Assembly: GCA_030077755.1 (NCBI GenBank)
Contig: JAQJZZ010000010.1
Coordinates: forward strand, 2,108,001-2,172,000
Direction: 5' to 3'
Length of the DNA: 64,000 nucleotides
Source of the DNA: Filosporella fistucella
Taxonomy: Eukaryota > Ascomycota > Leotiomycetes > Helotiales
This document shows, piece by piece, positions 2,340 through 49,232 of the stretch. The notes under the pieces were generated by a model. The model had not been told where the DNA came from, did not search any database, and was given only the letters and a program-made list of their open reading frames with translations. Numbering within the stretch: position 1 is the first letter of the stretch; every line of letters starts with the position of its first letter. The position numbers were made by a program, and so were the translations under genes.

Positions 2340-2619
2340 TGAAATCACGTGGTGTTTCCTGTCATTCCTACGGTGGGGAGGCCGGTTTTGGCTCCCCGAA
2401 GGACCACCTTTTGCTTCTGCTTCATCGGAGGATATCGGAAATCGGGGAATCCCGGCAGGTACGGTCAACCACAAACGTCGCAGCCACCACACCTTTTGCA
2501 GTCGCTAAATGATTATTGAAGTTACTACAGCCACACCGTCGTTTACTTAGAGAAGGTATCAGCCCGTGTGGCAATGGGATATACCATAGCCCGCTCTGTC
2601 CTCCAAAACATTAAGAATA
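2340..2619 (+). mobile_element. Fragment of outer pogo-like element A1 (left of the nested unit)
   Basis: The part from about 2553 to 2619 aligns with the subterminal region of element A2 at about 12975-13033: both contain the pattern GAAGTATCAGCC/GAAGGTATCAGCC, a GTGGC stretch and then (CC/CA)TAAGAATA. The homology stops at 2619 and resumes at 8938 with ACTTTTAATATC, matching A2 from about 13034 onward. The piece is therefore the left half of an A1 segment split by the unit at 2620-8935. How far A1 extends leftward is uncertain; 2340 is the first position with a similar layout (CACGTG followed by GC-rich DNA). Confidence 0.6.
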
Positions 2620-3115
2620 ACGTCTATCCCTACGTGCCGGAATACCCTATGTGCCGGAAAATTTTACCAGTACATTGATTTTAAGTATTACTAACTCTAT
2701 GCACTACGCAATATCTCCTATCATTTTTTAAAAGTTATATTCCGTGGCTACTTCCGAACATTGTAAACGCATTTAAATGAAAAATTTACGTTCCTGTCGT
2801 CGCCTTACATTTAATTTACAAAGGGTCGTATTTGATGTTGTAATAGACATCCTCTACCACAGCCGCACCGTTAGGCTTACATTATCTCTAAAACTTTTAA
2901 AAAGGGTCCCACCCAGATTCTTATATATCCCTACTATACGAGAGATCGTCAACAGCCTTTTGGCGGCCGTGGCGTGCGGTTTTATGCAAAATCGCCAAGC
3001 GGGGTGGTACCTCGGATCGAAGCGAGTGACGATCTTGGGAGCAGCCCCACATGCCCGACTCCGGACCTGCATTTCGCAGCTCGAAGGTAAAAATCACGTG
3101 ATAATCGGCATGAGA
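2620..3115 (+). repeat. Left long inverted end of the NLR-carrying unit
   Basis: The first 60 bases form the terminal repeat, with CCGGAAAATTTTACC followed by ACATTG. The rest contains a GTCGTCGCC motif, an AGAGATCGTCAACAG motif and a GGTGGTACCTCGG block. All recur in reverse complement at 8435-8935 and partly at 48725-49140. Confidence 0.75.
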
Positions 3116-3794
3116 AAGCTGAGTATTTCTGGGTGGTGTATGAGATAGCGTGCTCACAAGACAACAGTAGGCAAGGGGTGCATGGGTTTGCAACGTACAG
3201 GGTGTAATAGTTGTCAGACGTCGCCCTTCGCCCCTCAGATTACTTCGTAGTCAATTGCAAGGCAAGTTGACAAAATTCAAGCCGGTGATTGGTCAGACCA
3301 CTCGGATTTCCGTCGATATACGGATGCTTTTCGACCCGTCTAACAATTAAAATGACCTGTATGCTGCACACCTCAAACTTAGACTAGACTATCAAGGTCG
3401 TTATGGCATTCGAGTTGGGGCACGGCAAGAGTAAGGAAGCCCAAATCTCGATCTGGCAGCCGCGCTACATGAGAAACGGCGCGGAACATGGCGAAATTAT
3501 GGATGTCGAAGCAGTAATTGACTGTGATTTGGGGAGAACCCAGAAGACACGAAACCATCGCGACTGGCTATCGAAAGAGCTCATTCAAGTTAGAACATCA
3601 TTAGATTCCCACGAAGCTTAGATTAGGTCCTTCATCCCATCGTTGAAAAGCAAGACTAAAGGGTTTGCAACTATAGACTGATAACACTGAACGTATAGCC
3701 TTAGAACTCCACTCCATCTTGTCAACATCCTTATCCACCACCCTAAGTAGGTAGCTTCTCTCACAGTTTGCGGCGACGCCCAACAGCTAAGAAC

Positions 3795-4564
3795 TCATGC
3801 CGATACTTGAGGGTGCTGTTTCCGGATATGGCGCTGAAGATTGTCCCTGCGCTTGAAACTGTAATTGCTTCTACAGCCATCCACCGAACACTTGTATAGG
3901 CTGGTAGTGGTGTGGACATCATTGATATGGCGTCGAAGGTCCTTAGGATATCTGAAGGGTGATCTATCGCAGCTAGGGAAGCAGCACTTGTGAGGGTTCG
4001 GCGGTATGTGAGACCTAAGATGCGTTAGTCTCTCTGAAATCAAAGTTGGAGGTTCTTCCGAAGCCATACTTAAACTGATCTTCGGTATTAAATGATGCTC
4101 CGCATTGAGGACAGATGGTTGGCGTCCCCAAATCCGACGAAGTGGTGTCTGATGCTGGAAACGAAGCTCTCAATCCCTCTTTTTCAAGTTCGGCTTCACG
4201 TTCAAGTATCGCGTTTAACCAGCAAGCATCATCTGCTTCGCGACCACTCTGAACTTCATAAACCGGCTCGTCCATGTCTTGGGAATCGGTGGTATTGGCT
4301 GGCAGCACATAGTATGATGGTTATCGATCGCCATTTTGATCATTTGCTATCCTCCATGATGTTTTCGGCGGCCTCCTTGGTCGGCTCCTTGCATTCCATA
4401 CGACGGCTTCTTGCATGACCCCTTACTTCCACATTGTAAATTATTGGGTAAACATATGAGAAGTTGAGATTTTGCAGCCTCTTTGCGGATAATTGATTCC
4501 ATGATGTAGCCAGATGTTGGTATAATCGCCGTTTCTGAGACTTTACAATGAACCCGATGGACAA
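3795..4564 (-). CDS. C2H2 zinc finger protein (exon structure or frame uncertain)
   Basis: Three minus-strand open segments in different frames (4340-4564, 4015-4308, 3795-4067) appear to belong together. The middle one ends with a first finger start, CPQCGASF. The last holds two C2H2 fingers in the patterns C-x4-C-x12-H-x4-H (CCFPSCDRSPF...HINDVH) and C-x4-C-x12-H-x4-H (YKCSVDGCRSNYSF...HIRKQH). Such fingers bind DNA or RNA; the target is unknown. At about 4060-4070 the frame shifts by one base without an obvious intron of normal size, so the gene may be frameshifted or have a short unusual intron. The upstream segment 4340-4564 is the least certain. The gene lies inside the 6.3 kb pogo-ended unit, transcribed away from the NLR gene. 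An intact 90-residue protein could also start at the ATG ending at 4067. Confidence 0.55.
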
Positions 4565-5623
4565 AGAGTAGTCAGAGAGACAGCTCCCGTATTTTGGAAT
4601 TGCTTGTTTGCCCGATCAGGAACTCGATCCTTTTTTTGGTCTGTCCAATCCGCATATCAGCTTCCAAGGGGAAAGAATGATGTTGGCGATGGTTCAGAAG
4701 TGATGTGTTCGTTGGGGAGTTGTCGTAGAAATGGAAGAACGAGGTTGGTGAGGGATGCTGTAACTTTAGCGCCGCAAAGCCGCCGGTCGCGCACAGATGC
4801 CTGCGACGACAAACCCTGCCCTTATCATGGCGAGCACAAATGCCCAGGAGAGACTGCTTGATACGGCTTGATACAGCTTTTGAAGACGTTGCAACGTTTT
4901 TAGTGGTGTCATATATTTATCACCTGTTTGCAACTCTTGCTAGCTTGCCATCTGTCGAGCGTCTGCCAGTCGTTGTCTCCAAGTGCTTCGCCCTGCACCA
5001 AGTATACCGGAGAGTCTGAAATCTGCTCCATTTTGAACTACCATGAGTTAAGTTAAAGAAAATTCTATATCCACGCTCGCAGTTACATAGCGCATGGTAG
5101 TCTATTCTGAGCAACTGGTTCAAATTCGGCGCTTCTACTCAGCATTTCATTGGCTCTCTCAAAAGCCCTGCTGCTCTCAACCCCATACCAGCTTAAATTC
5201 AACTTGCGATGGGTTCAGCTCAAGGACCAGCGCTGCAAAGCGTCGCCGCACTTGACGGGATTTTACCTATGCTTCATCCTCTTCAACTTTAAGTCGTTGC
5301 TAGCCTTTCCCTTTTACTCCTATCTTCTGCCAAACTTTATGTCCGCAGTCAACTCGACCTTCCCCTGAATCTCACTCTTTCCCCTTGTTGCGAACCTCCT
5401 GATACTTGGATAAGTCTGTATCGTCAATTATCTGTAGCAGCAATCGAACCTTTCGACTCCTTGCAATAAACCTTGCCGCTAGGCTTTTGATGCAACTGTC
5501 ACTTTCTGCTGAACAGTCTCGTTCGAACCCCGAATAGGTCGCCCGTAGATAGATCTTATCTTCGTCCAGCTAACCATAACTATTCAAGCCTGTTGTCGAA
5601 TACCTCGGTCATAGAATCACACT
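4565..5623. other. Intergenic DNA between zinc finger gene and NLR gene
   Basis: Short open frames on both strands do not look like known proteins. The interval separates two divergently transcribed genes and should hold both promoters. From about 5380 to 5620 the DNA is pyrimidine-rich, as is common upstream of fungal start codons. Confidence 0.4.
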
Positions 5624-8303
5624 ATGTCAGGCGCCGAATTTATTGCAGTCGCAGGTGTGATCTCCTCGATTATGGCCATTGTCGATGGAATCAAGCAAGT
5701 CGTTGATGCAGCAGCTGAGGCAGAGGGCCTTCCAAAGGCCTTCCGCCAGGCTTCTGCGAAACTCCCAGTCATCAGCGATATATTGGAGGCAGCAAAGGAC
5801 AACTTCAATGGAAATAATATTTCCAGTGTCGAAAAGTCAGGGACACTTGTTATCAATAGTTGCCAAGACAAATGGAATACGTTGAACGACCTTTTCGAGA
5901 AAGTTATCCCTGAAGATAAGGCGTCGCGCGTCGAACGGTACCACAAAGCTGTCAAGACTTTGGGAAAAGGAGGGAAAGTGGAAAGCTTGATGAAAGGGAT
6001 TTTGGAGGATATACAGCTCTTAGCCTCTATCAAGACGATGACTATCTCGAACGTGGAGAAAGTTATCCTGCCAGTGACGGCTGCACAGAAAGAGAAGGTC
6101 CAAAAGGCTATCACTGATGTAGAGGCCTGGCCACCCTCTGTCCCCGACGAGGTGTTTCAAGAGGGAAATTATACAAATAATAATTACGGCGCTGGTCAGC
6201 AATATATTGCTCAAGGGGGTGCAGAACAAAACAACTTTCAAGGTGATTCAAGGCAGTATCATTCTGGTGGCGGTCCTCAGACCTTCAATGAGGGTAAGAA
6301 ATAAATCATCGATATAGTATAGGTTTCCTCTTTCTAATATATCTTTCATGGCCAAGTTAATAATTACGTCCATCACCACGCCCCTCCTGGTAAGTCGCAA
6401 AGGTCCAAGCTGACCCAGCGCTAATGATGTCCCGACGCGCAGAACGACTAGAGACCCCACCAAACCCGTCGATCGTCATACCCTTTAGTCGCGACACTGA
6501 CTTCGTCGCGCGAGCGATACTTGAACAGATTCGCCAGAAATGCGCCGTCTTGGGATCTCGGATCGCGCTTGTTGGCTTGGGCGGCGTCGGGTAAGCGCAA
6601 GTATTATTATTAATATCAATTTCTAACGGTTTTGAAGCAAATCGCAACTCGCCATTGAATACGCATACCGAATCCGAGCCCTATCACCAGAGACGTGGGT
6701 GTTCTGGGTCCACGCAAGCAATGCCGCCCGATTCGAGCAGAGCTTTCGAGATATTGCCAACTGCGTCAAGATCTCTGGACGAAAGCATCCACAAGCCGAT
6801 ATCTTCCAACTTGTACACGACTGGCTGCGCGATGAGAGGGAAGGGAAGTGGGTTATTATACTTGATAATGTGGATGATGCTGGATTCCTCATCGAGACTC
6901 GAAGGACCGGAGAAAAGGGGGAAACAACAGGCGCACAGTGCGAGAGCTTACCGTCACTGATATCATACCTGCCGCAGTGCCCGCATGGATCGATTCTCAT
7001 AACAACGCGGAGTGAAGATGAGGCCTTGAATCTTGTTGAACAGCGCGATATTATCACAATCGAACCGATGAGTAGTCAAGATGCACAAACACTCTTCGAA
7101 AGCAAGCTAGGAGGGCACGACGGCAGTAGTAATGACGGCGATGTTACTACCGAGCTTCTCGTAGCGCTCGAGTTCATGCCTCTCGCGATCGTTCAGGCGG
7201 CTGCATACATCCTGCGGAAAAAACCACGCTATTCTGTGCGAGAATACCTTCAGCATTTTCGGGAGAGCGATCGTAAGAGGACAATTCTTCTGGACTATAA
7301 TGGCAAGCAACTCCGTCGAGATAGGGAGGCGAAGAATTCGATTATCGTTACATGGCAGATATCGTTCGACCACATCCGTCAGATACGACCAACAGCTGCT
7401 GATTTATTATCGCTTATGAGCTTTTTTGACCGGCAAGGAATCCCCGAGGCTCTACTTCAAAATCAAAGCGAGCACACAAGATCGGGACAAGATCAGAGGG
7501 GGAGCACCGCTAGGAACTGTGTTGATAATGAAATTGACTATAGTGATGACGATGAAGAGAGTTCATCGCAGTCCTCTATAGGTGATAGGTTTGAAGAGGA
7601 TGTCTCAGTTTTACGAAACTACTCGTTCATCTCCGTCAATACAAATGGCACGACATTCGAAATGCACGGACTAGTGCAGTTAGCAACGCGGAAATGGCTT
7701 GAAGCTCACGGGCAGATAAAGAGGTGGAAATGTCAGTTTATCAAGAATCTTGAGGCAGAGCTCCCGACAGGAGAGTATGAGAACTGGGAGAGATGTCAAG
7801 AACTTTTTCCACACGCGCAATCGGCAGCAGCACACAAACCAAAAGAACCAGGTTCTTTAGTGGCCTGGGCTTCAATATTATACAATGCCGCGTGGTATTC
7901 CTGGAGAATGGGAAGAGGTGTGGAAGCGGAGAATATGGCGGTTCAGGCAACAGAAGTTCGAAAGAAGATTCTCGGTGATAAACACAGTGATACGCTAGGT
8001 GGGATGGCAATGGTGGGCTTGGTGTATAAGCTTAATGGTCGGTGGGACGAGGCCGAAGAGCTATTTGTCCAAGTCATGGAGACTCGCAAGACGAAGCTCG
8101 GAGTGGACCACCCAGACACGCTGAGTAGCATGGCCAACCTGGCATTCACGTGGAAGAGAAACGGCAAAGAAATTGAAGCTATAGGCCTTATGGAAGAATG
8201 TGTGCAGTTGCAGAAATGTATCTTGGGAGTTAATCATCCAGATTATATTTCATCTTGCATTGCTTTAGATCTGTGGAAGGCGGAGCAAGAGGATGCTGCA
8301 TGA
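5624..8303 (+). CDS. NLR (STAND) protein: SesA-like N-domain, Gly/Gln/Asn-rich motif region, NB-ARC, TPR
   Basis: My model joins 5624-6293, 6357-6389, 6443-6590 and 6638-8303, giving 838 residues. All three introns are phase-consistent, and the third rebuilds the P-loop GLGGVGKS (about 279-286). Residues 1-170 resemble the helical SesA-type N-terminal domain of fungal NACHT/NB-ARC proteins. Residues about 178-230 are rich in Gly, Gln, Asn and Tyr with imperfect repeats (GAGQQYIAQGG, GDSRQYHSGGG), like the sigma-type amyloid signalling motifs of fungal NLRs. NB-ARC follows, with Walker B IILDNVDD (357-364), GSILITTR as sensor and MPLAIVQAAA. About three kinesin-light-chain-type TPRs occupy 720-825 (LGVDHPDTLSSMANLA). 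Fungal NLRs act in self/non-self recognition and programmed cell death. No stop or frameshift was seen. The first part could be read as a separate 226-residue protein ending at 6304, but splicing before that stop keeps the frame. Confidence 0.85.
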
Positions 8304-8434
8304 ACGTATCCATCTGAAGTGCTAATGGTGGATAAACCTGGTTGATTTAGAAGACTATCACGGTTTTATAATTATGTATAATATAGCTGGCGGTTCGTAA
8401 TTTTTAAGTGCTCAGCGGGAGTATTTGAGCACGA
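8304..8434. terminator. 3' flank of the NLR gene
   Basis: A short AT-rich tail with TATAATTATGTATAATATAG at about 8365-8384 is a plausible polyadenylation region before the right inverted end begins. Confidence 0.25.
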
Positions 8435-8935
8435 AAATGAGGCAACCAGTTCCAGGCATTGTGTCACGTGATTATTCGGATCGAAGCTTCGAAATGCAGC
8501 CGATTATGTGGGGCTGCTTCCTACGAACATCGTCACTCGCTTCGAGGTACCGACCCGCGGGGCGATCTTGTTTTAATCTGCACGCCACAGCCGTTACAAG
8601 CCTGTTGACGATCTCTGGCGTCGTGGGCAGCCTAAGAACCTGGTCAAAACACTTTTATGAGTTTTAGAGGTAGTGCAAGCTGAATGTCGCAGCTGTGGGG
8701 GCGAGAGCTTATTACGATATTAAAGGAGGCTCTTTGCAAATTAAGCTTAGGGCAACGACGCGAATGTAAAATTTACAGTTGCAGGCACTTAGGATGTTCG
8801 GGAGTAGCTACGGAATGTATTTTACAAATATAATAATAGATATTGCGTTGTGCGAAGCTTTTTTAAATGCTTGAAGTCAATGTACCGGTTAAATTTTCCG
8901 GCACGCAGGGTTTTCCGTTACGCAGGGATAGACGT
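8435..8935 (-). repeat. Right long inverted end of the NLR-carrying unit
   Basis: Reverse-complement copy of the left end. The last 60 bases contain CCGGTTAAATTTTCCGGCAC and finish with CGCAGGGATAGACGT, then TA. Differences from the left copy are spread along the whole length. Confidence 0.75.
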
Positions 8936-8937
8936 TA

Positions 8938-9245
8938 GACTTTTAATATCATAATCAGTTTCGGATATCTATGTCTAATCGTTCTATGAGTAAAGCAAGG
9001 TAAAAAACCTTCGTTATAGTATCGCGAGGTAAGGAGTCCTAATATAGGTTGAAACAACGCTCTCTATAAATACTAGAAAGCAACGACGACGCAGTAAGAA
9101 ATCTCAGAATTAATAGGTCCAAAATATTTAGGAGAACTATATAAAACATTCGCGAACAAAGAAAGATATAAATTTTGACACATTTATAGATTTAGAGGTA
9201 ATTCAACTCGAAGTACCTAGGTTTTGTCTCGTCACGGGGTGCGTC
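8938..9245 (+). mobile_element. Fragment of outer pogo-like element A1 (between two nested insertions)
   Basis: Collinear with A2 from about 13034 to 13346: GGATATCTATGTCTAATCG, the later GAGGTA...TACCTAGG block and TTTTGTCTCGTCACGGGGTGCGTC match in order. It breaks at 9245 inside the terminal repeat, where the LTR element begins, and resumes at 13470. The copy is AT-rich with many transitions relative to A2, suggesting age and RIP. Confidence 0.65.
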
Positions 9246-9374
9246 AGTTGAGAACTGGAAGAAGAAGTGATAGTAGCATGCTTGATTGTAGAAGCTGGCT
9301 GTCTAGGTGTTGTTATATAGACAATAGACCCGGCTGCCTAGTATAGGCAGCCACCATGGATCTGGGATCCAACA
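9246..9374 (-). repeat. Intact LTR (3' LTR on minus strand)
   Basis: 129 bp. The 30-bp outer part (AGTTGAGAACTGG...ATAGTA) is followed by a 99-bp part ending GGGATCCAACA. The same 30 bp and 99 bp occur, in order, on the two sides of element A2. An internal palindromic GGCTGCC...GGCAGCC lies near 9333-9354. Confidence 0.75.
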
Positions 9375-9870: not shown

Positions 9871-9961
9871 AGTTGAGAACTGGAAGAAGAAGTGATAGTA
9901 ACGTCTGTCCCTACGTCCCGAGACGCACCCTGTCACGAGACGAATCTATAGTTTTGGAATC

Positions 9962-10920
9962 ATAAAATTTTCCTTCATCAGTTTACAAAGTTCTTATTAA
10001 TATCTTACTTTCTTTAGCTATTTCTCCTTAAGGAGCCCGCTTAGCAATAAGAAAAGACTGTAGTTAATCGTGCTGTCAATCCTTTCAATCACGCCATCAA
10101 TCACTGCTTCGGCTGTTTCCCCCTGTTTAATCACGACTATTAAAGTGTTTTCAAAAATCGGAGCACTCAGGGAAAGGTTCTTTAACGAGCAAATATGGCC
10201 CCTGATTTTAAAGACACTCAGAGAAGAAAAAAACACATTCCGGGAGTTACACCAGTGCGAGGAGAGAGCCACCTGTTTCAGTGCTTAGTAATATGCATTA
10301 GCCTAGCGATAATATACTATGTTCACACCTGGACTCGCTATATTAGCCAGTCACGTGCGAGGCGTAGGATGGTCAAGCATGTGGCGTAAGTGTATGTTTC
10401 TCGAACATTCCACAGGTGTAAAGGAGCGCGACCCCAACCAATCAAACAGCAGCCGCTTTTATCCTCAACAGAGTCCTTCCATCCCGGGCCAAGAAAGCAG
10501 TTAACTTAGTACAAGGAAAGGGTTGGACTGGGAGAGAGTTGGCACCAACGTGGTGGAATTACGGGGCAAAAAATTGCGAGGTGCAAGCTCAGCCTCCACA
10601 AGGCAGTCTCTCTACTGTACCTACCGCACGGAGATCAGGGGCTTCAGGGGCATCGCCGCTGAGTGGCGCATCATTTTCGCCTACGTTTTCATGTTTCTGC
10701 CAGCCTCGCCTGCCTTGGGCTTAAGCCATTTCAGCTAGTGCAAGCTTAGCCTCCACAAGGCAGTCTGCCTTACTTACTTGTATAAGAGGGTTTTAATCCT
10801 GATGGCTCCGCTTCATTTAATATATTAATAGTGTATAAGTTGTGATACCGAAGATAGTTATATAGGAAACAACAACAACCTCTTGTAGTTCATTTTTGCG
10901 ATCATCGAAGTTTTATTCCG
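9962..10920. other. A2 interior left of the CorA-like gene
   Basis: No supported gene. It contains a direct repeat of about 28 bp: CAAGCTCAGCCTCCACAAGG at about 10582 and the same with one change at about 10740. It may include the promoter of the following gene. Confidence 0.35.
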
Positions 10921-12678
10921 ATGGACACACTTTTATCGGCCAGAGAAAATACGGCTGTTAACCACGCTACATACTACGATCATGTCAAGATGCTATGGTA
11001 TTTAACCTTTCAACTATGTTGCTGCTCTGACCTTGTAATAATAGTGGAGCGTTTCCGCACCTCCGAGAAGTCCTAGAGTTCCTACGACCATATGAATTCA
11101 CGAGCCCGAATTGCACTGGGAGGAGGCCAACAACTAGTGTAAATGTGGGCCTCTTTGACTTTTCGCCACATCGTATTCTTGTCGAGAAATCGCTGTCTGA
11201 TATTCCCTCTGTTCTGCGCGAATGCAGAATTGCGCCATCAGACAGCCTGAAATACCGTGCCATAATAGTCGAAGACCTGTCCTCATCACTTATGGATGCT
11301 CTCGGGTGGCTTTTCATGTGTAGTCCATCAATGTTCGGAGATCACCTAGAGTTTCTAGGTGATCTGGAAAACGTCGGTGGGGACAGATATGAAGTCACTC
11401 CGCCTTCACCAGGCACCACTCTTGAAGACACGCATCTGTCGATCGGCTTTAAGCGTTTTGTACATCATGACGATGAAGAGCCTCTTCAAAAAAGAAAAAG
11501 AAATGTTTGGCGCGATATCTCACCCCATCATCCGGGACTTATCTCTGGGACGGTATGCGAGGAGCGTGTTACTATCGACTTCAGGAAGGATGTCTCAGGA
11601 TGCCTTCTAGGTACGTGTAACTTTTATTACTCTTTATTCTCACTTCTTGCTGAAGTCATCATAGCTGTCATTCTTGTTGACGCTTTTCCATATGTTACGA
11701 CATATGAGGACGGGACGTATAAGTCTTGGCCGAGGAACACTATTCGTTGGCATACTCCACAGTTGTCTCTGCTCGCCGGTCAAGATCTTGCAGCAAAACA
11801 CACGTTCCGCGATCGTTTAGTCAATGAAGCTCTACAACCCATGGCTTCTATGATGATGTCATCTTCAGGCGCCACTACACAGCTATGCTTTGCCTGCTCC
11901 ATCCTTCGAATTGTGATCTCAGAGTGGTCCGTAGTGCTGAAGGTTGACTCATCCGGCTTGACTGAGATTGAGAAACAATACTTTGTCAAGAGCCACGGCC
12001 CTTGGTCAAGTCAACTTAACGTAGCACATACAAATATACTCAACGACATTCTTGCCACAGCGAGGAATGCAAGAGAGCACATCAACCTCCTTTCTCGAAC
12101 GCTACAAGATTTCAAATCCAAAGACTTCTGTCGCTTGGGTGGTTGTGACGGTTGTACCCTGCGGACATATGTAATCAAGGACCTGGAGTATCTTTTGTCT
12201 CAAGCTCGTCGAGTACAAGAACAAAACGATGAGCACCTCAGGATCCTGACAAGTATTATGTCTATTGACGAGAGTCAGAAAGCAAACCATGCAAATAAGA
12301 GCTTAAGATAAGTCCCAGTTTTATCTAAAGGAGCAAATTAGAAGTTGACTCGGGAAGGTCTTCACGACACTATCAACTATCGCAACAATCTTTGTTCCGC
12401 TGTCATTTATCTCATCTGTATTTGGCATGAACGTGTCAGAGCTAGTACCGGGGTCTATGGTTTCTATGTGGAAATTTGTGGTTGTTGCGTTATCTCTCTC
12501 TGTGTTTACTCTCCTCGTCGCAGGATTGTGGGCAAAATTAAAAGTAAATCTCGCACAACTCAAGGTACGATACACCCAGGAGCTCTTCAAAATACCGCTA
12601 ACAAGGAAAGAAACGGTGTTTACAGATCAACTATCCAATGAGAATGAAGTTCAGAGGTCAGCGGACCAATGCTCGTAG
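10921..12678 (+). CDS. CorA-like Mg2+ transporter-family protein, possibly disrupted near its membrane part
   Basis: Exon 1 is 10921-10997. A 47-bp GT-AG intron (10998-11044) joins it in frame to exon 2, open to 12311. Exon 2 holds the soluble part, with IIVEDLSSSLMDALGW and the typical ILRIVISEWSVVLK helix. The C-terminal part continues from about 12353 to the stop before 12679: IATIFVPLSFISSVFG then the CorA signature GMN (at about 12426), followed by a second hydrophobic helix. CorA proteins are pentameric channels with two C-terminal transmembrane helices; many fungal members of this soluble-domain family are uncharacterised. Between 12311 and 12353 I find no clean intron; a TAA and a one-base shift suggest damage or unusual splicing. 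The gene is the only recognisable cargo of element A2. Confidence 0.65.
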
Positions 12679-13368
12679 TTGGCTAAAAGGCGTCAAAGAC
12701 CGGACGCTCGCAACGTAAGGTAGAAAAGAGCAGAATAATGGCAGGGCTGTCTCTTATTGTTAGAACATTCCTTACCAAGAGGTCGACAGCTAAGGCTTTA
12801 GACAGTCACGTGCCATGGTCCCTGAACGAGGAACTGCTGCGCACAAGCAGGATGCCAGGACGCGGAATATCCCGTAAGTCCGCCATGCACAGCCACATAT
12901 TTGAAGTACAATTTTACCCGAGATTACTATAATCACACCCGCCGCTGACCAGGATCATCGATTGCTTGATTGGAGAAGTATCAGCCTCCGTGGCGACAGC
13001 GTATAATATAGTGCGCTATAGCCGCCACAACCCTAAGAATACGGCTTTAGCATTATGATAAAACCTGGATATCTATATCTAATCGTTTTATGAGTTTATA
13101 ACGTGCAAAAAGCTTAATGGTGGTGTCGCGGGTCGGAGGGTCTATTATACTGTCAAGGGAAGCCCTCTGTAAATTCAATCTGGCGGCGACGACGTGGTCA
13201 TAATTTTCGGAATTGATAGATCAGGAGTGTTCGAGAGTAATATGTTATACAACTGAGACAGAAATAAATAGAAACTTTCACACGTTCACAGTTTTTTTGT
13301 TGCTTGAACTTGAGGTACCTACGATTTGTCTCGTTACAGGGTGCGTCTCGGCACGCAGGGATAGACGT
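12679..13368. repeat. Right subterminal region of element A2
   Basis: No gene. From about 12953 the sequence aligns with the A1 fragments (2553-2619 and 8938-9245) and, more distantly, with the ends of the NLR-carrying unit, for example CGACGACG words, AAATTCAATCTGG and CATTATGATAAAACC. It serves as the uninterrupted reference for the A1 insertion site. Confidence 0.6.
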
Positions 13369-13370
13369 TA

Positions 13371-13469
13371 GCATGCTTGATTGTAGAAGCTGGCTGTCTA
13401 GGTGTTGTTATATAGACAATAGACCCGGCTGCCTAGTATAGGCAGCCACCATGGATCTGGGATCCAACA
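13371..13469 (-). repeat. Second part of the LTR split by A2
   Basis: 99 bp identical by eye to 9276-9374, starting GCATGCTTGATTG and ending GGATCCAACA. Together with 9871-9900 it completes the 5' LTR of the minus-strand LTR element. Confidence 0.75.
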
Positions 13470-13495
13470 GCGTCTCGGCACACAGGGACAGACGT
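13470..13495 (+). mobile_element. Right terminus of outer element A1
   Basis: GCGTCTCGGCACACAGGG then ACAGACGT, followed by TA at 13496-13497. It directly continues the terminal repeat broken at 9245; GCGTC is the target duplication of the LTR element. Confidence 0.65.
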
Positions 13496-13499
13496 TAGG

Positions 13500-34784: not shown

Positions 34785-35190
34785 GCACACCAATTCCTGC
34801 TCAAACTCTTAACCGTGATACTGGGCCCTCTTCCCAGGAAGCCCCCACTCCTTTGATTGTCTCGAGGGCCGTTGGTGTGGAAGTGGGTTTGTGTCAATAA
34901 GATGAAGTGCCACAAACGCCTGTGACGCCAGTAATAGCAGAAGCTATTATGTCGTTACATGACCTGATTAAGCAGGATACCTATAACATTAACGAGACGA
35001 GCATACCGCGGATATAGAGGCATATTTGGAAGCTTTCCAATGCCGGCCAAACATCTATTGCCTATTGTGCCCTCCTCGATGAACGAAACTCACTCCTGAC
35101 TAGTATGAACAACGAAGCCAAAACTCGCTAATCAACCAAGTCCGACGTACTAGGGAAGGGGCAAGGGAAGGTAATGAGTTTCGAGGATAT
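34785..35190 (+). pseudogene. Pogo/Fot1-type transposase, C-terminal fragment
   Basis: Reads DEVPQTPVTPV, MSLHDLIKQD, ETSIPRI and KGQGKVMSFED with several stops. This is the C-terminal tail of fungal pogo-type DDE transposases, matching the better preserved copy at 38924-39545. It ends about 80 bp before the decayed terminus at 35272, which links this transposase type to that terminal repeat. Confidence 0.65.
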
Positions 35191-35194
35191 ACTT

Positions 35195-35846
35195 AAATTT
35201 TAAATTTTTTAAGTTAAAGTATTAATTATTTTTTCCAGCATATAATATTTTCCGGTATATAATAATAGACGTTATATTAATAATAACTTTATAAATTAAT
35301 TAAGAAAAATATTATAATTCTAAAATTATAAATTCATTTCGCTACGGAGTACGTCTCGCGATATAGGGACAAACGTTATTTTATATTTAATCTCTAATTA
35401 ATTAGGCGTTATAAGATATATATAAGATATATAGGCCCTTGACTCGTTTATATAATATATGGCACTTGTAATAATACAAGCACCGAGCTATAGGGCAGTA
35501 TATAGGAATATGATGCGGAGGCAATTCGGGTACTAACTTATTAGGTCTACTACGTAGGAAACAAGAAAGATGAGGGCCAAAGTAAGGGATCAGAGCCTCT
35601 TAGATATAGGAGCTAGCCCGGAACCCTTCCGTGGCTGGGTCTAAGCTTGCCAATGTCCGTTGATATCACGTGCCATCGTCACAGCACTCCTATTATATTA
35701 TGAACCCTGCATAGCCTTTTGTTGCATCGTTATGCAAGAATAAACGTTATATAAGGAAAGAAAAAAAACCAAAGATTATTCTAATCCTGCCTTATAGTAA
35801 ACTTTAACGCTATTTTCACTAATCTTTTTACTAGACCTATGCGCAA
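35195..35846. other. AT-rich decayed transposon DNA and flank
   Basis: Very AT-rich with two element ends (35272, 35376) and no open frame of interest. Consistent with RIP-mutated repeats. Confidence 0.5.
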
Positions 35847-36588
35847 TTAGCTTGAGGTTCCCCTTCCTTTAAAGACCGATATAAATATCAGTAGTATTAT
35901 AACGCTAGCACAAATAATAATACCTAAAAACTGCCCATTTATACCTCCTTTCTTTATCCCAACAATTGACTCGAGTTCTTGAATCTTTGACTGTGCATTA
36001 TATAGCAAACCAGCTGGAATCGCAAAAGCAACACAGATAAATATAGCCAATAAACAAATCAAGAATTTCAAATAGAGAGTAAAAACTGAAAGAATGAGAT
36101 AGAAAAACATGACTGTTAAAAGAGCTACGCATACCAAGCCTAGAGTTAAGTAAACTCGAAGGGTCGCAAATGTAACTTTAGCTAAAATCCCCTCTAAAGG
36201 CTGAAGAGACTGGAACTTGTGACTAATGAATCTTGCGACATCTTCGGGTGCATCCTTTGGTATTATACCAGAAATATTAAATGGCAAGTCGTTACATGTC
36301 ATATTGTGAGCCTGGAATCCAACGCAAAATTGTTTGGTGCCAAACGAACAATTTCTCGGAATCCATGCTTTAATTTCGTTAATGTTGGAGGCAGCAGCGC
36401 TTATACCACTCTGAACCTTACTGGCAGCAGCGGGAATAGCTGCTGTTAGAGCGCTAACGGCGCTTTGAGCTTCAGTTTGGAACGGTTGAATAAGGTCGGG
36501 AATGGCGCGCGGTTTGATTGAGGGGTTTGGCAGATGGATATCAGTGAAGATATCGGTAAAATTGAACTGATACGAATAACCTATTAGC

Positions 36589-36622
<34 letters not shown>

Positions 36623-36788
36623 GAGGAGAGGGATGGGGCAGAATTCGTACGGTTAAAGTTGCAATACCTGCTTTCGCAATCGTCTCATCCTGGGCGAGTA
36701 AATTGATCGCCAGCACTGCGCAACAGATAGCAGCAGATGAGAAAATGGAAAGGGTTCCTATTTGTAGCCAGTTTCTGCTGTTTAGCAT
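35847..36788 (-). CDS. Multi-pass membrane protein of unknown function
   Basis: Exons 36668-36788 and 35847-36580 (minus strand) join in phase through an 87-bp intron that contains a run of 30 T, giving 284 residues. The N-terminal transmembrane helix (about 10-32) is followed by an extracellular or luminal part with Cys (CSFGTKQFCVGF, MTCNDL) and N-glycosylation sites. Three closely spaced C-terminal helices precede a short cytosolic end. The layout (one helix, Cys loop, three helices) resembles fungal Sur7/PalI-type four-span proteins, but I see no defining motif. Without the intron the frame remains open through the T-run as poly-Phe, which would mislead annotation. Confidence 0.65.
36590..36619 (+). 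repeat. Poly-A run of 30 (poly-T in an intron)
   Basis: Thirty consecutive A on the plus strand, inside the intron of the minus-strand membrane protein gene. Confidence 0.95.
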
Positions 36789-36969
36789 TTTGAGAATTCT
36801 AATTTCAAGTTGATTTGAGATTGTGGAAACCCGAACTTAAGCATGGCGAGTGTTGCTCAGAAATAAATACAAACTTTAAGGTAGGGCATCCTTAAATGGA
36901 TCTGTGTAAGGCCAGGACTGCCTTCTACGTGAAACTAAAAATAGTACATTTGGTATCTACTTAATCGCG

Positions 36970-37098
36970 GAGCCGATTCTGGCTCTTGAGGATCCCCTCC
37001 CCCCCCCCCCCCCCCCCTCTCAGTACCCTTGCTTCTAGAACTCGTGCTAACAGATTATATTTCGCTCAACGATTCCATGGTAACGCAGTTCCTACTTA
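36970..37098 (+). pseudogene. Left part of a SNARE-like locus split by an element
   Basis: TACCCTTGCTTCTAGAACTCG followed by GCTAACAGATTATATTTCGCTCA corresponds to CCTTGCTTCTGAACG...GCTACCAGATTGTGTTTGCGTCA at about 24015-24070, upstream of the short SNARE gene. It breaks at TA (37097-37098), where the 7.5 kb unit begins, and the partner sequence resumes at 44620. A run of 19 C (36999-37017) lies at its left side. Confidence 0.5.
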
Positions 37099-37685
37099 AC
37101 GTCCATCCCACCGTGCCGAGGAGAAGAATGGGTTTTAGGTTCCTGAAATCTTCCCTTATAAAAATATCGAGTTATAGTTAAAATAAAGTTGTTCTTTGGC
37201 TATTTCTCTACATGTACTCGATTTCTAGTGGCAAAATAATAGTGTTGTGGCATAGTGGCAGATCGTGCCGTCAATGGCGTCGGGAAGCTGCTTCGGCGTT
37301 ACCCCTGCTATATCGCAACGATTGGCTATTCTCTGACTCTTGGTCCTTTAGTTCGAAGCTTTAACTCGAGAGAATACTGTACTAGTATATCCCTAAAGTT
37401 TCAAGGTCTATGACCTATCAAAACCTATTTGCCGGTTGCGTCCGGATTAAAAAGGAGAAGGCAAAAGACACGAGTTTCCAGCTTATCTAATATGAAAATT
37501 TCAGTCACGCTAATTATATATACAGTATATATGTAAATCATGGAATTGTGGTAAATATAGACTGTGGCATTCTTCTAGAACCTTCGGTGTTCTTTGTGGT
37601 TGGCAGACAGTCTCCGTACCTGCGTCTCTGGATCTCTGGATCTCTGGATCTCCCTTCTACATCCTGTCATTCGAGATAGGTTAGG

Positions 37686-39545
37686 ATGAGTGATCGCGCC
37701 AGTCGAGCTCTCGCAGAGGAAACACCGCCAGGAGAGCCTCGAATATATGATGTAATATCGAAACGAAGAAATGTTCCTATATTTACCTTAAATCATGGCG
37801 CACGAGGGCAGCGGTCGAGAGAAGCGAAGGATAAAAGCCAACTTTATCTCAAACCTCTAGAGGAGGTAGCCCTTATAAAGCATTTAATATTGGAGGCTAA
37901 CCTCGGATACCCTATTCATATCAAATTTCTAGTTTCCCTTGCCTTTATTATCGCCCGCCAGCGTTCTATGACAAATGATAAAGCAATTAAGCCTCCAAGT
38001 AAGAACTGGGCCCAAGGCTTTTAAAAGCATTACCCAGAACTCAAATCTAGGAGAGTATAAGCGATGGACTAGAAGCGTCACGAGAATAATATATATGATA
38101 AGATTATTTATTGGTTTAATATAATTGAAAAAATATTATAAGATCCGAATATCCTCCCCGAGAATATTTATAATATGGACGAGACTAGAGTTATGTTATG
38201 CATGCTCAATTCCGTCAAAGTCTTAGTGAGTAAGAATAATCTGCGAGACTATAGGGGCGTAGGCATTAAGCGCACGATAATAATTGTTATCGAGTGCATA
38301 AGTGCAAACGGTAGGTCTCTATTACCTATAATTATTTGGCCAGCCACGACCCATTAAAGCAACTAGACCACGTTTTCCACCCCGGGGTGGCACTATGCGT
38401 GCTCTAAGTCTAGATATACCAACTCAAAAATTAGCTTTAAGTGGCTTAAGCGTATATTTAACCCCCAAATTAAATAATAGGCGAACGGAAAGCCACGCGT
38501 GCTAATATGTAATAGCTTTAGAACACATGAGACCCTTGAAATTCTAGAGTTTTATTTCGAAAACAATATTATTTTATGTCGCCAGTGTTATAGGCGTCTG
38601 TGGTACTTCGGCTAGCAGATCAGGATTTATCCTTATCTCATCCGGTCCCGGGGTAATTAGTTAAGCTAGAGGTTTCGGTATAGGTCTAAGAACTCTATCT
38701 GGGTTAAACGGAAATAGACCAGTTGCGGCCTAGGCATTGGTAATATTCCTTTTCGAGAACGCCTTGTCCCTTGCAGGACTATATAGACAGGTAAAGTGTT
38801 CCTTACCGACTATGTCTATATCTCCTTGGAATAATCGTTTAACTTCGTCACGATACGTAGCCTTTAACGGTGTAAAAGCCCTAATATCGCATGGCTAAAG
38901 CTGATGGGAGGTGTGAGAAGGCAAGTATTAATAGAGGCTTTTATGTCATTGCATAACCTAATTAAATAGGATACTTCCACACTTGATGAGACAAGTATAC
39001 CCCGAGTATAAAGACGTGTATAAAAGCTTATTAATGCCGGCCAGAAAGCCATTGCTTATTATGGCCTCCTCAAACATGAAAAATAGCTATTAAAGAAGAT
39101 AAATAGTGAAGCCAAAGTTCAAAGATCGACCTAGTCAAATATATTTGCGAAGGGCCAGGGGAAGGTAATGAGTTTTGAGGATCTTGAGGTAGCACGAGCA
39201 GCGCGTGCTGCAAAAGATGCCGTTAAAGGTAAGAAGAAACGTGGACGGAAGCGTAATAGTGCGGCGTTAGATGATGAAGGTAAGCCAGACCCAGAGCCAG
39301 AGTCAGAATTAGAACCAGGACTAGAAACTGGACTAGAATCAGAGCCAGAATTGGCGCATGCTGCGAAAAAGGATAGAAAGAGTACGAGGAAACGTGCCCG
39401 AAAGCATGCGAGTATTGCAAACGCAGCGCAGCCAGCTCCAGATCCAGAGCAAGAACCAGCGCCAGAGCCAGAGCCAGTGTCAGAATTGGCACAGATGATT
39501 ATACCACCAGAAACATTAAGAGCACCAGTTGCGACAATGTACTAA
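37686..39545 (+). pseudogene. Pogo/Fot1-type DDE transposase, decayed, with an inverted internal segment
   Basis: The start MSDRASRALAEE opens a 112-codon N-terminal frame. A stop-ridden middle follows, then NMDETRVMLCMLNSVKVLVSK and RTIIIVIECISANGRSLLP (38175-38357), the first catalytic Asp region. Text matching YPTPGWHYA...CDGFGTHET continues in broken frames to LCR at about 38583. The next part, LPSHTSHQL, PCDI, YRDEVKRLF, GKEHFTCLYSP and AATGLFPFNPDR, reads on the minus strand over about 38586-38923. Plus-strand text resumes with EAFMSLHNLIK and ends with the intact tail KGQGKVMSFEDLE...KKRGRKRN and a Pro/Glu-rich repeat to 39545. Fungal pogo transposases are normally about 500-600 residues. 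Not functional. Confidence 0.8.
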
Positions 39546-41061
39546 AGTGCAGATTGTGGAGCAAATTTGCGTGTTGCAAGAGGAGTAAGGATTCTTGCTC
39601 GTCGTTGCGATTAGAATTAGATTTCTGAGGCAGAATCGTGCACGCGCTTAACCACTATACGGTAGAATTAGTCTTGGTAATATTCATAGCGCAATAAAAA
39701 TAGTAATGGATCATCTCGTACCAACCATCAACAAGTAATTCCTTTGTATGGATCTCGAAGCATGCTCAGGATGCTTTACTTCTCTCGTCTCCCAATGCGT
39801 ACTGACTGACTCTCTACTTCCTCGCCAACTCCCCACTTCCTGCTCATATATATCCTCAAACCTGCATCTAACTTCTGTTATTCTGCCAGTCGAGAGACCA
39901 GTCCGTGGACAAAAGGCCTGTGATGATGAAGCGCGAGTTACGTGATTATGGCGTAGGAAAAGGAGATGAAGCCGAAGTAACGCTATAGGGTGTTATTGCC
40001 TGCATTCGCAACGATCAGTATGCTCTCCTTGTAGGGTAATATGAAAGAGAACAGAGAAAAAGCTAAGTTTCTTGAAGCATTCATGCACGCCAGCCTCGAA
40101 CTACGGTGTTAAAGTGCAACTGCTCTAGGTACGTCTGGTGGAGAGGTGGGGTCATAATGTTGAATCGCGCAGTAAGCTAGAAGGTTACGAGAGCGATAAA
40201 TGAGCCGGACGAGGAAGCTATAGACTCGGAGATGTCATACTTTGAAAAAGTAACGATGACTCTGGCTGTCTCGTGTTGGAGCATTTTAGCGAGGCTGACA
40301 GACTGAGCTGCTCCACCCCAAGGACTTGACTTCAGCAAGCTCATATTCATCCCAACGCGTGGCTCGTTGCCTCTGTCACAACCGGGTAAATGGAGCGGGT
40401 CGTGGGTTTCGAACTTTTCTGACACATCACTGTGCATATACGAATCATATGTCATTATGGATTATGGAGCATTCTGATGGTGATGAACACTCGAACTTGC
40501 TCAACGAACGCTTTGATTTTGCAATCGGATCAAACCAGAGCATTTAACTCCATCGAAGAAATTGTACCACTTAATCAAATGATAAGCCTCTATTTGAAGC
40601 CTTGAACAATAGAGTATCTCACTGCCTTTACATTTCATGTATGCAAACCCATCCTTCTATTCAAAATGATACCGTTCACATATTTATCTCTCCTTATTGT
40701 CTAGCATGTGCGAGCTCCTTATCAATACCAAAAAGTTTCGTGGCTGTCCTAGTTCATGCAACATCGTAACAAAGACTCCCAACCTGTGTCCTGCCGCACG
40801 AGCTTCGGGCACGCAGTGTCCTAATCCAACGGAAGTTCCTCAAGGTTCAACCACCAGCCGCGATCAGTGCCCAAATCATATTGACGAAGGTTGCTCGCGC
40901 TAAACCCCCTGCTTCGTATGCGCCGACGAATGGGGTTTGGAAGTAGGAATCGGTATGGGTTTCGTGGTGGTTCACGATGTTTAAGGTGGCTTATAGACTT
41001 TCGTGGTGACTCGTGGTGGTTCGCGGTGGTTCAGGGCGGCACAATCATGCTATGATATGCT
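39546..41061. other. Gene-poor part of the 7.5 kb unit
   Basis: No supported gene. At about 40957-41040 a short repeat of TCGTGGTGGTTC-like words occurs four times. No right element end is visible soon after the transposase tail, where one would be expected for an intact pogo element. Confidence 0.4.
40957..41040 (+). repeat. Imperfect GTGGTGGTTC repeats
   Basis: TTTCGTGGTGGTTCACG, TTTCGTGGTGACTCGTGGTGG and TCGCGGTGGTTCAGG occur in close succession. Confidence 0.5.
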
Positions 41062-41880
41062 TTATATAAAATCGTAAATTTCTCGAGCAGAAGCAATCTG
41101 GGATGTCCAGCACCGTTTAATGAACTGTCCACTGACTATCCTTGAGACGTCAGGGAACTTGTGATTCCGATAGTTTTCTTCAACTTCATCCTCAGAGAGT
41201 TCAGGAAAAGGAAGCTGGCATGTCATTATAAAGTAGATTGTCGTGCCCAGCGCAAATAGATCGTCTTGCACCGTTGGTGGATCTCGCCAGCACCTGTCTG
41301 GTAATGAGAATCTCGGTCCACTACAAGCTGACGGTTTGGAGCCTGCAAGAGATGAGCCCCCAAAGTCTGCAATCTTTAGCCCTAGATATGCATCAAGCAG
41401 GATGTTCTTAGGATTTATATCGCAGTGAAGGACGTCTGCATCGTGTAGAAGCTGAACGCCTTCAGCTGCCTCTTGAACCCATCGAAGTCGCTGTGTTTCA
41501 GTGACCGTGTCGTTGTGGACAAGGAGATAAGCCTGTAAGTTGCCATTTGGCATATATTCCATAGTAAGGTCGCAGGTTTGAAGATTCCAACCAACGATTG
41601 CGACTAGACGAGGGTGCCGGCCAAGCTTGCGGTATATCTCGATCTCGGTCGTAAGGTCTCTGCGACTGTCCTTTTCCGATTGACCAGGCCATGGCGACTT
41701 CATTACATCGCCGCAGGGCAAGATCTCCAAGATCCCGGAAGCACCAGTGTCAAGAAGCTGACCCTTAGCGTAGCGCACATCATCTTGGATTGCTGGGGTG
41801 AGAGTATTTGGGACTTGTACGCTCATCTCGATTGTGATGATGGAGACGAGCATGGCGGAAGAGATGACAGAATTAAACAT
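41062..41880 (-). CDS. Protein kinase-like protein, HCD catalytic loop
   Basis: Single exon, 272 residues. The kinase fold is visible: VMKSPW (ATP-binding Lys), TEIEIYRKLGRHPRLV (helix C Glu), LTMEYMPNGNLQAYL hinge, VLHCDINPKNILLD catalytic loop with Asp and Asn, KIADFGGSSL (DFG) and DDLFALGTTIYFIM. The HRD Arg is Cys, so activation-loop control is of the non-RD kind. The Gly-rich loop is reduced (DTGASGILEI). The protein ends soon after the helix I region, so the C-lobe is compact. Many fungi carry such free kinases as accessory genes. The first 17 residues are hydrophobic and resemble a secretion signal; the next ATG would remove it. It is cargo of the 7.5 kb unit. Confidence 0.8.
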   Translation of the reverse strand: MFNSVISSAMLVSIITIEMSVQVPNTLTPAIQDDVRYAKGQLLDTGASGILEILPCGDVMKSPWPGQSEKDSRRDLTTEIEIYRKLGRHPRLVAIVGWNLQTCDLTMEYMPNGNLQAYLLVHNDTVTETQRLRWVQEAAEGVQLLHDADVLHCDINPKNILLDAYLGLKIADFGGSSLAGSKPSACSGPRFSLPDRCWRDPPTVQDDLFALGTTIYFIMTCQLPFPELSEDEVEENYRNHKFPDVSRIVSGQFIKRCWTSQIASAREIYDFI

Positions 41881-42227
41881 CCGTCGCGGTCGCGGTCTCG
41901 GTAAAATATATATCCGGTATTGGTCTGTGCTTGATGACCGAATGAGGACACTATAGTCAGAGTGCTTAGTACTTTAAGTGTCTCTCGTTATGTCCTGAAA
42001 ATACCTAGCATTAAAGTAGTGTGTAGTTTGCGATAGGTAAGTATGGGCGATCGCGCCACTCAAACTCCTATAGAGGGCAGTCACGTAACGTCCGCAGGAA
42101 TGTTTGGTAAGTTAGGAGCAAGACGAAGATCACACACTAATTTGAAGGAATAAAATATATCTATTACAAGAGCGGGTCAAATTTCCATGCAGGAAGGGGG
42201 CGGCTCTTGTGCAGCCTTGCGATTACA

Positions 42228-48724: not shown

Positions 48725-49140
48725 ACGTGCTGATATGTTCCCCGAGCCGAAGTACCGACCTGGGTGTCGATCTTGTATTGATCTGCATGCCACAGCCGCC
48801 AGAGCACTATTGACGATCTCCTGCATAGTGGGGAGGCCTTAGAACTCGGCTAAGAACCCTCTAAAAGTTTTAGAGATGGTACCAGCTCAGTGGCAGAGCT
48901 AGAGGAAAGGAAGTCTATTACGTTATAAAAGGTGACTCTTTGCAAATTAGGCGTAAGGGCGACGACACGAACGTAATTTCCTAATAAGAGTGGTTTAGGG
49001 TATTAAGAACCAGCTATAGAATCTAAGTTAAAACAAAATAACGACAGATTAAGTTATGCATAGAATTTTTGATACTTGAAGTCAATTTACCGGTTGAATT
49101 TTCCGGCATGTAAGGCCTCCCGTTACGCAGGGATACACGT
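48725..49140 (+). mobile_element. Right end of a pogo-like element (NLR-unit type), partner not found
   Basis: Collinear with 8530-8935: GTACCGACC(T/C), then CCACAGCCG, TTGACGATCTC, GCAAATTAGGC...GGGCGACGAC and CCGGTTGAATTTTCCGGCAT, ending CGTTACGCAGGGATACACGT at 49140, followed by TA. No matching left end lies nearby, so it is a solo end or the right boundary of a larger unit. Confidence 0.65.
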
Positions 49141-49232
49141 TAGAGAACGTAATTATGCATAAATAAACAACGATAAAACGGTACCAAAACGACCGGGATA
49201 GTGTCTTCAGGTGGCCTTGCATGTGAAATCAT

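What the first reader, a model, noticed from the sequence alone, without database searches (positions are those of the whole stretch)
2618..8937. NLR gene inside a 6.3 kb pogo-ended unit with a readable insertion site
Both ends (2620 and 8935) are inverted copies of one pogo-type terminus, flanked by TA, and extend as diverged inverted repeats of about 500 bp. The flanks join over one TA to match an uninterrupted paralogous site near 13033. So a complete NLR gene and a zinc finger gene appear to have moved as a non-autonomous DNA transposon. Pogo-like elements normally carry only a transposase; NLR cargo would give a direct route for spreading self/non-self recognition genes.
Basis: partly seen in the sequence, partly recalled or inferred. 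Interest (0 to 1): 0.9.

Follow-up and report, generated by a model that had tools for sequence, protein, structure and literature searches.

The report
Pogo-type transposons carrying fungal NLR genes
In this fungal genome a small cut-and-paste jumping element has carried a complete immune-receptor (NLR) gene into a new place, and sister elements with matching ends carry other self/non-self recognition genes, so ordinary DNA transposons may spread and remix such genes.

Summary
Confirmed and enlarged. Window 2620-8935 (E1) is a TA-flanked unit with ~490-bp inverted ends (73% alike); its outer flanks rejoin over one TA to match four uninterrupted paralogous sites. It holds an intact spliced SesA-NB-TPR NLR (838 aa), a split zinc-finger frame and no transposase. 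The five close genomic copies of this NLR (>=63% identity) all end 593-686 bp from a terminus of this family, in E1-E4. E2 (12.9 kb) also holds an open pogo/Fot-type transposase frame and two NLRs. E1's NLR is a mosaic of both plus a foreign head. Across 72 termini, 8 of 150 listed HET hits lie within 5 kb inside a terminus and none outside only (random mean 1.0); 8 of 16 two-ended units hold a HET or NLR gene. Three related units share both ends but carry different genes. Best reading: a pogo/Fot-like transposon clan that carries and reshuffles NLR/HET cargo. NLR-type cargo is published for Starships and one hAT element; nine paper searches listed no pogo case. Present activity is unproven; no other strain could be checked.

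The parts
2618..2619 (.). TA, left copy of the target-site duplication
   Evidence: empty site
2620..3101 (+). left inverted end of E1
   Evidence: 72.3% over 491 columns to the right end
3798..4320 (-). C2H2 zinc-finger gene copy, split between two overlapping frames
   Evidence: tblastn of the E2 zinc finger: two pieces in different frames, 79% and 81%; Pfam weak
5624..8303 (+). NLR gene: exons 5624-6293, 6357-6389, 6443-6590, 6638-8303; 838-aa SesA-NB-TPR protein
6369..8144 (+). part of the NLR that is 93% identical to NLR-B of E2
8037..8937 (+). NLR tail plus right end, 90.5% identical to NLR-A tail plus left end of E2; the switch lies in the TPR repeats
8464..8935 (-). right inverted end of E1
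8936..8937 (.). TA, right copy of the target-site duplication
2547..2617 (.). left piece of the older family-B end that E1 interrupts
   Evidence: joined-flank alignments reach back to here
8938..9374 (.). right piece of the older family-B end that E1 interrupts
12970..13469 (.). uninterrupted paralogous site
9899..13370 (.). family-B unit of 3472 bp with 48-bp inverted termini; frame of 388 aa at 11145-12311(+) without Pfam match; shares both ends with a HET-carrying and an F-box-carrying unit elsewhere
37686..39561 (+). broken, partly inverted relic of the E2-type transposase
48743..49142 (-). further end of the same family, 68-72% to the ends of E1

Best explanation
E1 (2620-8935) is a non-autonomous member of a clan of fungal pogo/Fot-like (Tc1/mariner) transposons whose members carry host-type genes, HET and NLR genes above chance. 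Shown: a block with family ends and no transposase entered a TA as one piece; in all five close copies the NLR is joined to the end at the same distance; the NLRs stay open and constrained; heads, repeat tails and ends have been exchanged between copies. Inferred: an E2-type transposase (open frame in a two-NLR element with matching termini) recognises the ends in trans, cuts at TA and pastes the unit elsewhere; recombination between copies, in the TPR repeats and the ends, makes new receptors. The effect would be to spread and diversify self/non-self recognition genes.
For: Empty site, 4 of the 4 junction-spanning paralogs. Family termini genome-wide with 0 control hits. Seven outer stretches of 0.97-1 kb beside E1-E4 share no homology with one another, so likeness stops at the ends. 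5 of 5 close NLR copies end 593-686 bp from a terminus; 0 of 22 other NLR/TPR groups lie within 1 kb of the 46 termini, the nearest (3258 bp) being the unit E6. E2, C9:2016470-2029348: TA on both sides, ends 80.8% alike over 912 columns (NLR tails included), two NLRs, a zinc finger, a 770-aa open frame with DDE_1 (2.8e-33) and HTH_Tnp_Tc5; two of the three presumed catalytic Asp are invariant in all 10 aligned proteins, the third in the 8 that cover it (that these are catalytic is recalled). E2's right end lies at a TA inside a second transposase copy. NB-region dN/dS 0.14-0.27 in 10 of 10 pairs. Mosaic E1. HET exon and 5' flank of E4 shared with the HET-NACHT-WD40 unit E5, 86.7% over 1023 bp. 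HET hits: 8 of 150 listed within 5 kb inside a terminus, 0 outside only; random mean 1.01, at most 7 in 2000 draws. Same ends, different genes.
Against: Ends within one element are only 73-81% alike, so no insertion looks recent, and E1's left end is as close to other ends (up to 76%) as to its own right end (73%). No strain comparison, no activity test. An empty site was shown for E1 only; for E2 the left flank lacks the other half of the interrupted transposase. E3 has one end; the two termini of E5 share only 25 bp. The E2 transposase tail departs from its relatives after about residue 570 of 651. NACHT genes are not enriched (1 of 61 inside, 2 outside within 5 kb), and with a 10-kb limit 2 HET hits fall outside. 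NB-ARC stays under Pfam's cut-off in these NLRs.
Confidence: 0.85

Rival explanations
1. Two independent MITE-like insertions happen to flank a resident NLR gene, and the unit never moved as a whole.
For: Termini without a partner within 15 kb exist (e.g. C10:3293259, C3:839959), as does a 371-bp two-ended unit at C3:256181-256551.
Against: The outer flanks of E1 rejoin over one TA to uninterrupted sites; a resident gene would leave its DNA between the flanks. The NLR-to-end distance is the same in 5 of 5 copies with unrelated flanks.
Confidence: 0.04
2. The NLR-plus-end blocks spread mainly by segmental duplication, ectopic recombination or gene conversion between repeated ends, with little or no transposition.
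For: E1 is a mosaic, ends differ by 19-27% within elements, E2 and E3 adjoin each other on C9, and part of a transposase is missing beside E2.
Against: Single-TA empty site of E1, TA on both sides of E1, E2 and E4, no shared flanks, copies on C7 and C9. Recombination explains the mosaic but not the insertion.
Confidence: 0.08
3. The carrier is a Starship-type giant element; the pogo-like ends are passengers in an NLR-rich island on C9.
For: Many termini lie at C9:2.0-2.3 Mb, and the window has a partial DUF3435 frame at 49801-51489 (22.1 bits, under the cut-off; 36.2 with neighbours). NLR cargo in Starships is published (PMC12134995, PMC9594970, passages).
Against: E4 and several HET units lie on other contigs; units are closed by the pogo-like ends and TA; no DUF3435 match falls inside E1-E4. 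Both movers could act on the same island.
Confidence: 0.06

Closest known systems
Tc1/mariner elements of Sclerotinia sclerotiorum (PMC4188875, passages read)
   Same: TA target, ends beginning ACGT, transposase with HTH_Tnp_Tc5 and DDE-type domain; host is a leotiomycete
   Different: 1.8-2.3 kb, inverted ends of 36-70 bp, transposase only; here two-ended units of up to 12.9 kb, inverted ends of about 490 bp in E1, with NLR, HET and other genes
ToxhAT, 14-kb hAT element of wheat pathogens (PMC6737239, passages read)
   Same: TIR-ended DNA transposon that carries a gene assigned there to the NLR family (Patatin-TPR)
   Different: hAT type, one element among several cargo genes; here pogo type, NB-TPR and HET-NACHT-WD40 receptors in several copies, NLR joined to the end, module exchange
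Starship giant elements (PMC9594970, PMC12134995, PMC9815663, passages read)
   Same: fungal mobile elements known to carry NLR/HET genes
   Different: moved by a DUF3435 tyrosine recombinase, tens to hundreds of kb; E1-E4 hold no DUF3435 match and have TA-flanked inverted ends
HNWD genes of Podospora anserina, het-d/het-e family (PMC1805685, PMC12222747, passages read)
   Same: HET-NACHT-WD40 architecture and repeat arrays, as in E5
   Different: the passages seen describe no transposon ends around those genes
Tec and TBE elements of ciliates (PMC7325037, passages read)
   Same: Tc1/mariner relatives with extra genes (TBE: zinc finger) or long ends of about 700 bp (Tec)
   Different: no immune-receptor cargo mentioned; other hosts

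Membership tests
Tc1/mariner, pogo/Fot group | TA target-site duplication | tested here: met
   TA at both ends of E1, E2, E4; empty site of E1 over one TA
Tc1/mariner, pogo/Fot group | DDE_1 domain with CENP-B/Tc5-type DNA-binding domain in the transposase of the family | tested here: met
   E2 frame: DDE_1 2.8e-33, HTH_Tnp_Tc5 24.1 bits against cut-off 22.2. E1 itself has none
Tc1/mariner, pogo/Fot group | three catalytic Asp (DDD; recalled) | tested here: met
   conserved in the alignment, two in 10 of 10, one in the 8 that cover it
Tc1/mariner, pogo/Fot group | transposase acts on these ends | not testable with these tools
   only co-occurrence in E2
Tc1/mariner, pogo/Fot group | small element with short ends and a transposase only (usual form) | tested here: not met
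   E1 6.3 kb, E2 12.9 kb, ends about 490 bp
fungal NLR | N-terminal effector domain, NB domain, repeat domain | tested here: met
   SesA 1.6e-39, TPR_10 2.4e-26; Walker-A sequence; three further NB motifs in 5 of 5 copies; relatives carry PF00931. NB-ARC itself stays under Pfam's cut-off
fungal NLR | triggers cell death or allorecognition | not testable with these tools
   needs expression or deletion
Starship | DUF3435 captain within the element | tested here: not met
   12 matches in the genome, none inside E1-E4
MITE | short, without coding capacity | tested here: not met
   E1 has 6.3 kb and an open NLR gene

The most novel reading that the evidence does not exclude
A clan of pogo-like transposons in this fungus has specialised in carrying self/non-self recognition genes: ends and cargo are exchanged, receptor modules (SesA, HET or short heads; NB-TPR or NACHT-WD40 bodies) are shuffled on the move, and one autonomous-looking element carries its own transposase plus two NLRs, so that the mobile element itself generates new recognition specificities.
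Probability: 0.45. Interest if true: 0.93.

Novelty: new variant of a known kind. Interest (0 to 1): 0.82.

Why it matters
How fungal NLR and HET repertoires arise and turn over is open; giant Starships are one known carrier. Small cut-and-paste elements that carry whole receptors, with a readable insertion site and visible module exchange, would be a second route that can be tested locus by locus. It also asks why a transposon would keep an intact receptor under purifying selection.

Tried and rejected
Rejected: two separate MITE insertions (empty site); RIP as the main cause of end divergence (transitions:transversions 57:51 in E1, 49:25 in E2, 53:42 in E4); one simple inversion of an E2-like parent to make E1 (zinc-finger orientation does not fit; reasoned by hand). 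Looked for the missing 5' half of the E3 transposase in 3.47 kb left of E2: no match better than E 0.19. Scan of viral contigs for the transposase: 43 pattern matches, 0 confirmed. Relatives of the zinc finger: 4 proteins among 16 candidates. NACHT near termini: no enrichment.

Papers: nine library searches; the listings seen show no pogo-type element with NLR or HET cargo, but several listings were cut (20 of 85, 20 of 30, 12 of 13, 15 of 77, 15 of 29 papers) and most subscription papers are not held. Of papers opened I saw only passages found by terms.

Limits: no relatives of this assembly are held, so no presence/absence test. The genome search says its counts are lower bounds. Units rest on termini within 3 mismatches of two patterns; more decayed ends are missed, and pairs were called by adjacency (+ then - within 15 kb). 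Contig lengths in the random draw were partly taken as the largest coordinate seen. The HET and F-box cargo of two family-B units were not aligned with each other; they differ by Pfam family.

Full report
WHAT IS THERE. The window lies in an unnamed 45.8-Mb fungal assembly of 19 contigs at C9:2108001-2172000. Named close protein relatives are often Leotiomycetes (Leptodontidium, Tricladium, Cadophora, Lachnellula), so the host is probably a leotiomycete (inference). The unit 2620-8935 (E1) begins and ends with inverted copies of one terminus, each with TA outside; the likeness runs inwards for about 490 bp at 72.8%. The terminus pattern has 46 sites genome-wide with up to three mismatches and none for the reversed control.

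IT INSERTED AS ONE BLOCK. For the four, 0 of 300 shuffled left flanks reached the true joined score. The target is the end region of an older related element (family B; 29 matches of that region in the genome, itself included). E1 has no transposase trace, so it is non-autonomous.

THE NLR. A hand model with three GT-AG introns gives one 838-aa protein: SesA, linker, NB, TPR. NB rests on motifs and homology; Pfam NB-ARC is not reached in E1 and is under its cut-off in E2 NLR-B. The zinc-finger copy in E1 is split between two frames; in E2 it is one frame.

FOUR UNITS, FIVE NLRs. A search of the genome with the NLR exon gave 79 rows; five loci have at least 63% identity over 507-555 residues: E1 (100%), E2 NLR-B (91%), E4 (65%), E3 and E2 NLR-A (63%); the next full locus is at 33%, besides short scraps at C2:578387 and C9:6206164. 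In 5 of 5 the NLR 3' end lies 593-686 bp from a family terminus. Of 22 other NLR/TPR groups in that call none lies within 1 kb of the 46 termini; the nearest, at 3258 bp, is E6 below. E4 is C7:2734688-2739523 (4.8 kb). E3 has a right end only (C9:2036253). Seven outer stretches beside E1-E4 share no homology with one another. E2, C9:2016470-2029348 (12.9 kb), holds NLR-A(-), a 770-aa open frame with DDE_1 and HTH_Tnp_Tc5, a zinc finger and NLR-B(+), between ends 80.8% alike over 912 columns, NLR tails included. Its right end stands at a TA within a second, truncated transposase copy that belongs to E3; the other half was not found in 3.47 kb to the left, so that side has been rearranged. E2 has the only full-length open transposase of this kind among 30 rows; the rest are partial or broken, one of them in the window at 37686-39561. 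The tail of the E2 frame departs from its relatives after about residue 570 of 651, so activity is open.

CONSTRAINT AND SHUFFLING. NB-region dN/dS is 0.14-0.27 in all 10 pairs. E1 is a mosaic: 6369-8144 is 93% identical to NLR-B of E2; 8037-8937 is 90.5% identical to the NLR-A tail plus E2's left end, and only 78.8% to the NLR-B side. Its SesA head has no counterpart in E2-E4 (8 SesA rows in the genome, none there); the E2 and E3 NLRs have a short N-terminal motif, E4 a HET head (4.4e-13). E5 (C9:2050429-2056655) carries HET-NACHT-WD40; its HET exon and 5' flank are 86.7% identical over 1023 bp to those of E4. E5's two termini share only 25 bp, so its standing as one element is less sure. E6, with one terminus at C9:2312182, has a HET frame (4.6e-14) and a TPR frame with an NB-like stretch (by eye) just inside, 22-33% identical to E1.

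CARGO BEYOND THE FINDING. A second terminus pattern gave 56 sites, control 0; the union is 72 termini. Of 150 listed HET hits (151 counted; 287 candidates, 150 scored) 6 lie within 2 kb and 8 within 3, 5 and 10 kb inside a terminus; outside only, the counts are 0, 0, 0 and 2. Random placement (5 kb) gave a mean of 1.01 and at most 7 in 2000 draws. NACHT (61 of 75 rows) is not enriched: 1 inside, 2 outside within 5 kb. Of 16 two-ended units, 4 contain a listed HET hit, and E1, E2, E4, E5 carry NLRs: 8 of 16. Of the other eight, one holds an F-box gene (C10:807362), one a phosphatase-like gene with a PigL_N/SesA-like part under both cut-offs (C7:120112), one a 388-aa frame of unknown kind (window 9899-13370), one is 371 bp long, and four were not or only partly looked at. 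Three family-B units (HET, F-box, unknown) share 453-596 columns at each end at 72-76%, with inverted termini of 43-48 bp; their genes differ (no likeness of the unknown frame to either; HET and F-box differ by Pfam).

WHAT IT IS LIKE. Transposase domains, TA target and ACGT termini agree with Tc1/mariner elements described in Sclerotinia (PMC4188875, passages), which are 1.8-2.3 kb with 36-70-bp ends. NLR genes as transposon cargo are on record: in Starships (PMC9594970, PMC12134995, PMC9815663, passages) and a Patatin-TPR gene in the hAT element ToxhAT (PMC6737239, passages). Nine library searches listed no pogo-type element with NLR or HET cargo; several listings were cut, and only open-licence papers are held.

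VERDICT. Shown: one-block insertion of E1, shared ends, a constant NLR-to-end joint, constraint, mosaicism, HET enrichment inside termini. Inferred: mobilisation in trans by an E2-type transposase, and an effect on recognition. Not shown: present activity, and variation between strains.

Noticed in passing
window 49801-51489 (-): Frame with a partial DUF3435 match (22.1 bits, under the cut-off) followed by what look like C2H2 stretches (by eye): perhaps a truncated tyrosine-recombinase remnant.
   Followed up: partly
window 34844-39561 and 44620 (-): Broken, partly inverted relics of the E2-type transposase and a weaker family end, without an NLR nearby.
   Followed up: partly
L012:6795-9746 and L036:1-855 (C9:2050429-2056655): HET-NACHT-WD40 gene (HNWD architecture) with alike WD40 repeats between two family termini; the closest other NACHT in the genome is 36% identical.
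   Followed up: partly
L019:4913-9444 (C7:120112-124642): TIR-ended unit with a frame that joins a PigL_N/SesA-like part (under both cut-offs) to a phosphatase N-terminus, followed by a phosphatase piece.
   Followed up: partly
window 13343-13371 and 13470-13498: The terminus of the family-B unit occurs twice, 127 bp apart, in the same orientation (93% over 29 bp): two possible right ends.
   Followed up: no
C2:2122535-2126003 (no locus cut): SesA, NB (33% to E1) and HET hits lie together some 5-8 kb from a two-ended unit at C2:2112886-2117501.
   Followed up: no
window 41065-41973 (-): Open frame with a protein-kinase domain (Pkinase 2.8e-26) next to the transposase relics.
   Followed up: no
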